Shown here: positions 31,608 to 36,403 of the stretch, piece by piece
Layout: every line of letters starts with the position of its first letter
How positions within the stretch are numbered: position 1 is the stretch's first letter
From: Chloroflexota bacterium
Lineage (GTDB): Bacteria > Chloroflexota > Dehalococcoidia > Bin125
Assembly (NCBI GenBank): GCA_028875225.1
Contig: JAPPFB010000023.1
Span: 39,975 to 88,900 of the forward strand
Length of the DNA: 48,926 nucleotides
Direction: 5' to 3'
The notes under the pieces: model-generated
Told to the model about the DNA's origin: nothing
The model's input: only the letters and a program-made list of their open reading frames with translations
Databases searched by the model: none
Position numbers and translations under genes: made by a program

Positions 31608-32570
31608 TCACTCTGCGAACTCGACAGCCGGCTGCCGCCGCAGCTGCACGAACGAACTGCCAATCACCAGCAGCACGACACCGACCAGCACCTCGTAGCC
31701 GAGCGACTCGCCCAGAATGGCCCAGCTGAAAATCACCCCGAAGATCGGCGCGAACAGCATCGTCGCCGACACCTGCGAGGGGAAGTAGCGCTTGACCAGC
31801 CAGGTGTTGCCGATGAATCCGAACCCGCCAATCACGACCCCTTGGTAAAGCAGCGCGATGATGAACTCGTTCGTCCAGGCAATGCCGCCCGACTCGATGA
31901 ACAGGCCGGCCAGGCCGAAGATCAGTACCGCCGCGACCGACTGCGTCATCAGCAGCCGGGCCGGGTGAATGCTCTGCGAAAAGTGCGACAGATAGACCTG
32001 CCGCGCCGCCAGCAACGCCGCTGAGCCGACCGTCATCAAGTCGCCCCAGACGCTCGCGCCCGGCGCGCTGAATCCTCCAACAAACACAACGACCACCCCC
32101 GCATACGCGACCAGCAAGCCGCCCGTGCGCCGAGTCGACATCCGGTCGCCCGGAACGAACAGGTGTCCCAGCACCGCCGTCCAGAGCGGGAAGGAGAAGA
32201 TCAGCACCGAGGCGTGACCCGAACTGGTGTTGTCGGCGCCGACGTACATCAGCATCGTCTGCACGACAAACAACACGCCCAGCCCGTACAGCGGTCTTAA
32301 CTCGCTGCGCGTCGGCCTCAGCGGGGTCCTGGTGACGATCGCGTAGCCGATCACGACGACGCCGCCCAGCGCCATCCGGATGGCGCTCAGCCGCAGCGGT
32401 CCCACGCCCTCTTCCAGACCGGCCTTGATCGCCGCCGGCTGGCCGCCCCAGAGCAGGACCAGCAGCATCGCCAGCGCACCGGCGCGCAGCGTCAGCGGGC
32501 GTCGAACTTCCAGCGGAGCCGCGACGCCTCTCGGCGCTTCATCCTGAGGAACCGACGGCTGTGTGGACAC
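31608..32570 (-). CDS. EamA/DMT family transporter
   Basis: This 320-residue protein has about ten transmembrane segments arranged as two EamA halves. Halves start at LTLRAGALAMLLVLLWGGQP and GDLMTVGSAALLAARQVYLS. It is a cytoplasmic-membrane exporter or importer of small metabolites. The start used is GTG; GGAG is too close to act as a normal ribosome site, so the true start may differ. It follows the BNR gene by 26 bases on the same strand and may be part of the MoaD-BNR operon. Substrate unknown. Confidence 0.88.
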   Translation of the reverse strand: MSTQPSVPQDEAPRGVAAPLEVRRPLTLRAGALAMLLVLLWGGQPAAIKAGLEEGVGPLRLSAIRMALGGVVVIGYAIVTRTPLRPTRSELRPLYGLGVLFVVQTMLMYVGADNTSSGHASVLIFSFPLWTAVLGHLFVPGDRMSTRRTGGLLVAYAGVVVVFVGGFSAPGASVWGDLMTVGSAALLAARQVYLSHFSQSIHPARLLMTQSVAAVLIFGLAGLFIESGGIAWTNEFIIALLYQGVVIGGFGFIGNTWLVKRYFPSQVSATMLFAPIFGVIFSWAILGESLGYEVLVGVVLLVIGSSFVQLRRQPAVEFAE

Positions 32571-32596: not shown

Positions 32597-33676
32597 TCAG
32601 TCGCTGTTGTCGAGTTGCCAGGCTCGCACGGCGGTGATCGGAGCCAGGTGCTCTCTCAGCAGCGACCAGCTGTCGCCGCCATCGATCGAGCCGTACAACT
32701 CACCGCCGCTCGATCCGAAGTACAGCCCCAGCGGATCGCAGGAGTCCTGTCCCAGCGCGTGCCGGTAGACCGTGTGGAAGAAGTCGGATTGCGGGAGTCC
32801 CTGGTCCAGGCGCTCCCAGTGCTCACCGGCGTCTCGGGTGCGAAACACGGCGAGTTCGCCGCCATACGGCATCCGCGCCTGATCGGAATCGTGCGGGATG
32901 AAGTAGCAGACGTCGGGATCGGTCGGGTCGATCGCGGTGGGAAAGCCAAACTCGCCGGGCAGGCCGTCGCTGACCTTGATCCAGTTCCGGCCGTCGTCAT
33001 CCGATCGGTACTGGCCGAAATGATTCTGCTGCCAGAGCCGTCCCTGCTGCATCGGATGGGCGAACAGCGAATGCACGCAGGGCGCGGTGTCCTGCATGTC
33101 GGGTGGCAGATGGTCCGACACGATTCCGCTGTTTCGCGCCTCCCAGGTTTGTCCGCCGTCGTATGAGGCGTAGATCCCGGTCGCCGAACCGCCCACGATG
33201 ACCCGGTCGGGATTGTCGGCGTCAACCGCGATGTGGTGAATCACCAGTCCCGCCGCGCCCGGCTCCCAGTACTTGCGGTAGGGATGTTGGCTGAGGGACG
33301 TCATTTCCTGCCAGGATTCGCCGTCGTCCTCCGACCTGAACATGGCGCCGGGCATGATCCCGGCGTAGAGCAGCCCGTCGCGACCGCCCGGTTCGATCAT
33401 CCAGATCGCTTCCACCGAGCGTTCCCCGTCGTCGAATGCGGGCGTCCCCGCCTCGACCCAGCTCTCACCCCAGTCGGTTGAGTAATGCAGTCGCGGTCCC
33501 CATTGCCAGTGACTCGCCGAGCACCAGATCTTGCCGCTCCGCGCGTCGAGCATCGTGTAGTCGACGATCCAACCGGCGCGCTGCAGCTCGGACCACTCCC
33601 AGCTCGTGCGATCGGCGGAACTTCTGCCGATCAGAAGTCCTTTGCGCGTGCTGACCAACAGCCCTGCTTCACTCAT
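32597..33676 (-). CDS. BNR/Asp-box repeat beta-propeller protein (sialidase-like)
   Basis: This 359-residue protein carries six Asp-box motifs of type SxDxGxxW: STDWGESW, SEDDGESW, SYDGGQTW, SDDDGRNW, TRDAGEHW and SIDGGDSW. They fit a six-bladed propeller. It has no signal peptide and no clear sialidase catalytic triad, so it is probably an intracellular propeller, not a glycosidase. Its ATG overlaps the stop codon of the MoaD-like gene (ATGA, 33673-33676), so the two are translationally coupled. That pairing suggests a joint role; the reaction is unknown. Confidence 0.85.
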   Translation of the reverse strand: MSEAGLLVSTRKGLLIGRSSADRTSWEWSELQRAGWIVDYTMLDARSGKIWCSASHWQWGPRLHYSTDWGESWVEAGTPAFDDGERSVEAIWMIEPGGRDGLLYAGIMPGAMFRSEDDGESWQEMTSLSQHPYRKYWEPGAAGLVIHHIAVDADNPDRVIVGGSATGIYASYDGGQTWEARNSGIVSDHLPPDMQDTAPCVHSLFAHPMQQGRLWQQNHFGQYRSDDDGRNWIKVSDGLPGEFGFPTAIDPTDPDVCYFIPHDSDQARMPYGGELAVFRTRDAGEHWERLDQGLPQSDFFHTVYRHALGQDSCDPLGLYFGSSGGELYGSIDGGDSWSLLREHLAPITAVRAWQLDNSD

Positions 33677-33984
33677 GAGTTCACCTTCGACCGTTCCGGT
33701 TCTGTTCCCGCTCCGCCGGATACGGCCGGCAGGATGTAGAGCTTGTCGCCTGCCTTGACCGCATCGGAGAGTTCCTGGCGATCGACAATCAGTTCGTCGT
33801 TGATGTAGATGTTGACGTGCTCTCGCAGCCGATGAGCGTCGTCGAGGACGAATCGACGCAACGGCGGATGGATCGCAATCAGGTCATCGAGCGCCTCGCG
33901 AGCCGTTCCACCGTCCACGTTGACCCGTTCGGGTACGTCGACATGCACCCGGAGTCCGCGGGCCATGCGAATCTCAACGCTCAT
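33673..33984 (-). CDS. MoaD/ThiS-like ubiquitin-fold protein with extended C-terminus
   Basis: This 103-residue protein has a ubiquitin-like fold with the usual VNIYINDELIVDRQ and DKLYILPAVSGG motifs. In MoaD and ThiS the diglycine is the last residue pair. Here Gly90-Gly91 is followed by 12 more residues (AGTEPERSKVNS). Processing would be needed before adenylation, or the protein is not activated at all. The start at 33984 is chosen for AGGAGG just upstream; 33999 is an alternative. It is coupled to the BNR protein gene by a 4-base overlap. Confidence 0.85.
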   Translation of the reverse strand: MSVEIRMARGLRVHVDVPERVNVDGGTAREALDDLIAIHPPLRRFVLDDAHRLREHVNIYINDELIVDRQELSDAVKAGDKLYILPAVSGGAGTEPERSKVNS

Positions 33985-36151: not shown

Positions 36152-36403
36152 ATGTCCGACAAGCAGATCACCATCGAAGTCGTCTACTGCGCCGACTGCG
36201 GCTACTGGCCGCGCACATCCTGGATGCTCGGTGAGCTGATGACCGACATCCAGCACCTCGTCTCCGACGTCAAACTCATCCCCGACACCAGGGGCCTCTT
36301 TGAATGGTCCGTCAACGGAGACCTCGTCTTCAGCAAAGCCGCCATGGGCCGCTTCCCCGACATGGACGAACTCCGAGAACTCGTCTACGCCCACCTCGAC
36401 TGA
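36152..36403 (+). CDS. Rdx family (SelW/SelT-like) thioredoxin-fold protein, Cys form
   Basis: This 83-residue protein is of the Rdx/SelW family, with a thioredoxin-like fold. The redox motif is Cys13-Ala-Asp-Cys16 in VVYCADCGYWPR. In selenoprotein W the second position is selenocysteine; here it is a TGC Cys codon. The rest (LIPDTRGLFEWSVNGDLVFS, FPDMDELRELVYAHLD) matches the family. Probably a small thiol oxidoreductase. It lies under 2 kb from the UGSC selenoprotein gene. Confidence 0.88.
   Translation: MSDKQITIEVVYCADCGYWPRTSWMLGELMTDIQHLVSDVKLIPDTRGLFEWSVNGDLVFSKAAMGRFPDMDELRELVYAHLD

What the first reader, a model, noticed from the sequence alone, without database searches (positions are those of the whole stretch)
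32597..33984. MoaD-like protein with a masked diglycine, coupled to a BNR propeller
The PAVSGG end of a MoaD/ThiS-type protein is covered by 12 extra residues, and its gene overlaps (ATGA) that of a cytoplasmic six-Asp-box propeller. Ubiquitin-like proteins with tails need a protease to expose the diglycine. No JAB protease, E1-like MoeB or molybdenum cofactor gene is near. A dedicated ubiquitin-like or sulfur-carrier pair with the propeller as partner or substrate is possible.
Basis: partly seen in the sequence, partly recalled or inferred. Interest (0 to 1): 0.65.

Follow-up and report, generated by a model that had tools for sequence, protein, structure and literature searches.

The report
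Tailed sulfur carrier paired with propeller
A small ubiquitin-like sulfur-carrier protein that recurs in many bacteria beside one uncharacterised ring-shaped (propeller) protein carries, in this lineage, a disposable tail over its active end, which the cell's single tail-cutting protease probably removes; the tail is ordinary, but the conserved partnership has no known function.

Summary
A 103-residue MoaD/ThiS-type protein (33673-33984, minus) ends ILPAVSGG plus 12 residues, and its gene overlaps by ATGA a 359-residue Asp-box propeller (32597-33676). The gene pair is real: present in 15 of 20 genomes of the family, in 11 other Dehalococcoidia genomes, and in Pseudomonadota and Actinomycetota, in either gene order. 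Solved relative 3b7f has no known function. The tail is not a dedicated device. Outside this family nearly all paired MoaDs end exactly at GG. Inside it, tails are 2-17 residues, change as fast as third codon positions, are predicted disordered, and translate the spacer carrying the propeller's ribosome-binding site, while SGG never changes. CysO and other carriers of these genomes vary in the same way. 'No JAB or E1' is true only of the window: the genome has exactly one of each, in a CysO/CysM cluster, plus a MoaD-MoaE fusion that must also be cut after GG. Best reading: a shared JAMM protease trims the tail, the shared E1 loads sulfur, and the propeller is the carrier's dedicated partner, probably the sulfur acceptor (inferred; complex prediction inconclusive). 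Masked carriers are known (QbsE, PtmS2, MoaX); the propeller partner appears undescribed in the papers searched.

The parts
33673..33984 (-). MoaD/ThiS-type sulfur-carrier (SAMP1/CysO-like) protein, 103 aa plus stop
   Evidence: PF02597 E 8e-10; nearest solved relatives 4n6e_B ThiS/MoaD family protein, SAMP1, CysO; AF2 beta-grasp fold with pLDDT mostly over 90 for residues 1-88
33712..33717 (-). codons of the diglycine (Gly90-Gly91), invariant in every family member
33676..33711 (-). 12-codon tail AGTEPERSKVNS; its DNA carries the Shine-Dalgarno-like AAGGTG of the propeller gene
   Evidence: sequence; residues 89-103 predicted disordered; not conserved
32597..33676 (-). Asp-box (BNR) beta-propeller, 359 aa, ATGA overlap with the carrier gene
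   Evidence: PF02012 and PF15902; 3b7f E 3e-55 by sequence and top structural match with TM 0.90 (target-normalised) for its G140 relative
31608..32570 (-). EamA-type transporter downstream on the same strand, 26 bp after the propeller; kept in this family only, so not counted as part of the conserved unit

Best explanation
The two genes encode a sulfur carrier and its dedicated partner. The carrier is made as a precursor with a disordered C-terminal tail. The genome's single JAMM/Prok-JAB metalloprotease, encoded on another contig beside CysO, CysM and the E1, cuts after Gly-Gly whatever follows. The single MoaD-fused E1 (ThiF/MoeZ type), with a rhodanese as sulfur source, then turns Gly91 into a thiocarboxylate. 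The mature carrier docks on the propeller, which uses its conserved Lys/His/Gln/Arg/Asp set to accept the sulfur, as MoaE, ThiG, CysM or BexX do for their own carriers. The tail has no function of its own: after the ancestral stop at GG was lost, the reading frame ran through the spacer that holds the propeller's ribosome-binding site to the next stop, at or before the ATGA overlap, and the protease made this harmless. Shown here: the gene pair, its conservation, the invariant GG, the unconstrained tail, and the presence of one E1 and one JAMM. Inferred: cleavage by that JAMM, thiocarboxylation, docking and sulfur transfer to the propeller.
For: Pair adjacent and co-oriented in all 15 family members that hold it, absent together from 4 others; in 11 further Dehalococcoidia genomes of 8 families with the order reversed; in 10 of the 13 plasmid records hit by the carrier alone. 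Chance of such adjacency is about 0.2% per genome. The window-family carriers and the proteobacterial paired carriers form one clade, SH-aLRT 97. SGG is invariant in the family's 15 paired carriers; in the five members sharing the 35-nt spacer, tail codon positions are 47/44/37% identical against 79/88/53% in the core. Spacer from GG to the propeller ATG is 34-35, 44-47 or 17 nt in the genus, and the tail ends at or within it. Prok-JAB in 20 of 20 family genomes, with JAMM motif HSHVASEARPSPTD in the window's genome; one ThiF; the only MoaE is fused behind a MoaD at PPVSGG|SDD, the arrangement shown to be cut Gly82|Ser83 in MoaX (PMC4326299). Tails of 2 or more residues in 22/67 carriers of JAB+ genomes against 1/21 of JAB- genomes (p 0.010). 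Capped carriers needing a protease: QbsD precedent, PtmS2 with JAMM PtmS1 (PMC6006322). A JAMM protease removing a 9-residue tail exactly after GG: CsUb/CsRpn11; promiscuous JAMM-1 (PMC6043591). Propeller residues K12, H147, H202, Q217, H219, R305, D311 at 93% or more in 73 relatives.
Against: No predicted interface: the read-through MoaD-propeller model has pTM 0.77, about what two independently placed domains would give. No natural MoaD-propeller fusion was found. More than half of the propeller relatives sampled have no MoaD in the few kilobases examined. One actinobacterial paired MoaD lacks GG altogether. The JAB-tail association is not corrected for phylogeny and vanishes when one-residue tails are counted. 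Exact-GG carriers also occur in many JAB+ genomes.
Confidence: 0.6

Rival explanations
1. The tail is a functional cap: it blocks premature activation or conjugation, or recruits the propeller, and its removal is a regulated switch.
For: All 15 family members are capped, most by 11-14 residues; capped carriers with clustered proteases exist (PMC6006322).
Against: Tails range from 2 to 17 residues with no shared sequence, evolve like third codon positions, are absent from paired carriers outside the family, and equally random tails sit on CysO of the same genomes.
Confidence: 0.12
2. The carrier is a ubiquitin-like modifier that is conjugated to proteins (SAMP-like), with the propeller as substrate or as substrate-recognition adaptor.
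For: Nearest curated family is SAMP1 (57.6 bits against a cut-off of 60); E1 and JAMM are present; propellers are common adaptors in ubiquitin systems (general knowledge).
Against: The E1 and JAMM lie in a cysteine-synthesis cluster with CysK, CysM and a rhodanese, pointing to sulfur transfer; SAMP1 cut-off not met. E2 and E3 genes were not searched for.
Confidence: 0.15
3. The pair no longer does sulfur chemistry: the MoaD-like protein is a structural subunit or assembly factor of the propeller and its GG is a leftover.
For: Nonomuraea's paired MoaD ends LPALA without GG; the tail would block activation if not removed.
Against: SGG is invariant in all family members although the residues right after it are free to change, and GG ends nearly all other paired carriers.
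Confidence: 0.13

Closest known systems
CysO-CysM-Mec+-MoeZ cysteine pathway (Mycobacterium; PMC3227635)
   Same: MoaD-type carrier, E1, JAMM protease; the window's genome has a full set with CysK/CysM and rhodanese on contig C2
   Different: The window's carrier pairs with a propeller, not a cysteine synthase, and lies on another contig; Mec+ in Mycobacterium releases cysteine from CysO, while here tail removal is proposed
Capped sulfur carriers QbsE/QbsD and PtmS2-PtmS3/PtmS1 (PMC6006322)
   Same: GG covered by extra residues, protease needed to expose it
   Different: Caps on PtmS2 and PtmS3 are 2 and 1 residues and ptmS1 is clustered with ptmS2; here caps are 2-17 residues and the protease gene is unlinked
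MoaX, fused MoaD-MoaE (PMC4326299)
   Same: GG inside a longer chain must be cut; the window's own genome also has such a fusion
   Different: The part after GG is a working domain there, a disposable tail here
3b7f / YP_299179.1, Ralstonia eutropha Asp-box propeller of unknown function (PMC2716378)
   Same: Same propeller family, E 3e-55, single uninterrupted propeller
   Different: Deposited as a putative glycosyl hydrolase, function listed as not known; no MoaD link was reported in that paper
Thiosugar-type sulfur carrier in complex with its acceptor (4n6e; Amycolatopsis CysO-BexX, organism and partner recalled, not tested)
   Same: Best-scoring solved carrier (41.5 bits); a carrier serving a non-canonical acceptor enzyme
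   Different: Acceptor is a thiosugar synthase; that carrier ends at GG

Membership tests
MoaD/ThiS sulfur-carrier superfamily (PF02597) | beta-grasp domain scoring above the Pfam cut-off | tested here: met
   39.5 bits against 22.5; AF2 beta-grasp model
MoaD/ThiS sulfur-carrier superfamily (PF02597) | Gly-Gly at the end of the domain | tested here: met
   PAVSGG, invariant in 15 family members
MoaD/ThiS sulfur-carrier superfamily (PF02597) | Free C-terminal glycine in the mature protein, thiocarboxylated by an E1 | not testable with these tools
   Gene product has 12 further residues; one E1 in the genome
SAMP1 (NF041918) | Score above the curated cut-off | tested here: not met
   57.6 bits against 60
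Molybdopterin synthase small subunit MoaD (TIGR01682) | Score above the curated cut-off | tested here: not met
   17.9 bits against 66.15; the genome's only MoaE already carries its own fused MoaD
Capped carriers matured by a JAMM protease (QbsE type) | Residues after GG | tested here: met
   12 residues
Capped carriers matured by a JAMM protease (QbsE type) | JAMM protease with a complete motif in the genome | tested here: met
   Prok-JAB 71 bits with E and HSH-x7-SxxD
Capped carriers matured by a JAMM protease (QbsE type) | Demonstrated cleavage after GG | not testable with these tools
   needs protein chemistry
3b7f-type Asp-box propellers | Full-length homology to 3b7f | tested here: met
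   Residues 6-352, E 3e-55; TM 0.90 for the G140 relative
Sialidase / glycoside hydrolase (annotation of relatives) | Catalytic residues of GH33 or GH74 | not tested
   Only fold-level matches to GH74 seen; the conserved set is Lys/His/Gln/Arg/Asp

The most novel reading that the evidence does not exclude
A widespread, undescribed sulfur-transfer (or ubiquitin-like) pathway in which a dedicated MoaD-type carrier delivers sulfur to, or is attached to, a soluble seven-bladed Asp-box propeller enzyme now annotated as exo-alpha-sialidase; a propeller would be a new type of thiocarboxylate acceptor.
Probability: 0.4. Interest if true: 0.7.

Novelty: new variant of a known kind. Interest (0 to 1): 0.45.

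Why it matters
Genes of this propeller family are annotated 'exo-alpha-sialidase' in public records; the MoaD neighbour says that many of them probably belong to sulfur chemistry instead. The free drift of stop codons after GG is also a simple sequence sign that a lineage may mature its carriers with a tail-blind JAMM protease, which can be tested on any genome.

Tried and rejected
Sequence error at the stop: rejected, 15 genomes have tails. Tail as conserved targeting or binding peptide: rejected by its variability. Molybdopterin MoaD: rejected by score, and the only MoaE carries its own MoaD. Larger conserved operon: the whole neighbourhood is syntenic inside the genus, but outside the family none of the window's other neighbour genes tested stays with the pair (two loci held only a distant CoA-transferase match). 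Natural fusions: none in the loci examined. Complex prediction on a read-through of the G140 pair (TGA read as Trp) gave no confident interface. Literature searches for the pair found nothing; the 2006 survey of prokaryotic ubiquitin-like neighbourhoods does not mention propellers.

Full report
What is there. On the minus strand, 33984->33673 encodes a 103-residue ThiS-family protein whose beta-grasp domain ends ILPAVSGG, followed by AGTEPERSKVNS. The stop TGA overlaps the ATG of a 359-residue Asp-box propeller running to 32597. The propeller's best solved relative is 3b7f (E 3e-55), a seven-bladed Ralstonia eutropha protein whose function is listed as not known (PMC2716378). An EamA transporter follows 26 bp further on. 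The window belongs to a 3.2 Mb assembly, 96% complete, whose named relatives are Dehalococcoidia/Chloroflexota genomes.

Is the pair real? Yes. In the GTDB family, 15 of 20 genomes hold the carrier gene directly before the propeller; four hold neither, and one (G223) has a propeller cut by a contig end. In 294 genomes of the class, 83 have a propeller relative. Eleven genomes outside the family, from eight families, have a MoaD-type gene directly behind the propeller, i.e. in the opposite order. In plasmid records the carrier alone finds 13 records; in ten of them the match lies next to the propeller, for instance Mitsuaria, Pseudomonas aeruginosa, Cupriavidus and Burkholderia, where annotators wrote 'MoaD/ThiS family protein' and 'exo-alpha-sialidase'. 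Arthrobacter and Nonomuraea show the reversed order. The chance of a random gene having one of about seven carrier genes as same-strand neighbour is about 0.2%. The propeller tree needs 7 changes of the pairing label, against about 28 when shuffled. The paired carriers of this family and of the Pseudomonadota form one clade (SH-aLRT 97); those in the reversed order fall elsewhere (89 columns only, many forks unresolved).

Is the tail real, and is it special? It is real in all 15 family members that have the gene, but it is not special. The tails are 12, 12, 12, 13, 12, 14, 14, 13, 12, 13, 2, 2, 5, 17 and 11 residues long, with no shared sequence, after an invariant SGG. In the five genomes with the same 35-nt spacer, tail codon positions 1/2/3 are 47/44/37% identical against 79/88/53% in the core, so the tail is as free as synonymous sites; a second, closer group of four shows less contrast (74/83/62%). 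The distance from GG to the propeller ATG clusters at 34-35, 44-47 or 17 nt within the genus, and that stretch carries a ribosome-binding site (CAGGAG, AAGGTG). At 64.6% GC a 12-codon run stays open by chance 73% of the time. Hence the common length of 12-14 residues is explained by the DNA spacing. Outside the family all paired carriers examined end exactly at GG except Nonomuraea's, which ends LPALA. AlphaFold2 gives the domain high confidence and residues 89-103 below 50.

Other carriers in the same genomes behave alike. CysO, beside the E1, ends GGAS in the window's genome and GGAR, GGSR, GGDG, GGDYRVVGGHR, GGAHRRAAGVHRRAGGAR and so on in relatives, once with no tail; other free-standing carriers have 0-9 residues. 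Over the class, 22 of 67 carriers in JAB-positive genomes have tails of two or more residues, against 1 of 21 in JAB-negative genomes (p 0.010; not corrected for relatedness, and not significant for tails of one or more).

The machinery. This resembles operon type 4c of Iyer et al. 2006 (PMC1779556). Prok-JAB is in 20 of 20 family genomes. The genome's only MoaE is fused behind a MoaD with PPVSGG|SDD at the joint; the like-built MoaX of M. tuberculosis is cut between Gly82 and Ser83 and needs this for activity, by a protease not yet identified (PMC4326299). So this cell very probably has an enzyme cutting after GG irrespective of what follows. Capped carriers are matured in this way (QbsD; the JAMM PtmS1 proposed for PtmS2; PMC6006322), and a JAMM enzyme removes a nine-residue tail from an archaeal ubiquitin (PMC6043591).

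How it most likely works. Precursor, tail removal by the shared JAMM, thiocarboxylation by the shared E1 and rhodanese, then delivery to the propeller. The last step is inference from the habit of carriers to sit beside their acceptors (ThiS-ThiG, MoaD-MoaE, CysO-CysM; general knowledge) and from the propeller's conserved K12, H147, H202, Q217, H219, R305 and D311, several of which seem to lie on the first strand of successive blades, which in propellers line the central channel (inferred from sequence; no coordinates were available). A model of the G140 pair read through its stops gave pLDDT 89.5 and pTM 0.77 with a disordered linker: both domains are sound, their contact is not predicted. 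Foldseek confirms 3b7f as nearest fold (TM 0.90 on the target), then DAIP, GH74 enzymes and Ycf48.

Verdict. Confirmed observation, interpretation half right: an ordinary capped carrier, joined to an unexplained but conserved partner. The interest lies in the partner, not in the tail.

Noticed in passing
L279 (G000:C27:166448-166780 region), locus ORF from 1222: The window genome's only MoaE is a MoaD-MoaE fusion (MoaX type) with an internal SGG before SDD.
   Followed up: yes
L177 (G000:C2:346500-354500): Complete CysO-type sulfur cluster: Rrf2 regulator, CysK, MoaD:ThiF fusion, CysO ending GGAS, CysM, rhodanese, and a JAMM protease next to a FolP-like gene and an MT-A70-type methyltransferase.
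   Followed up: yes
L091 4083-4395: Nonomuraea MoaD-like gene behind the propeller ends LPALA with no diglycine.
   Followed up: partly
L164 / L193 (G140:C5:402123): A MoaD-like domain fused in front of about 430 residues of another protein, next to an aldehyde-ferredoxin-oxidoreductase-like gene.
   Followed up: no
L185 (G241:C3:104295): A carrier whose tail is 51 residues of AGGAG-type repeats, with several new GG motifs in it.
   Followed up: no
L210 (G259:C92:10965): A MoaD-like domain continuing without a stop after AVAGG into an AhpD/CMD-like sequence (RASPGAYQALKQLQ; resemblance recalled, not tested).
   Followed up: no
L068 (G191:C29): Three tandem copies of the propeller gene without a MoaD neighbour.
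   Followed up: no
window 36152-36403 +: Small Rdx/SelT-family protein (PF10262) in the genus-conserved neighbourhood of the pair.
   Followed up: no
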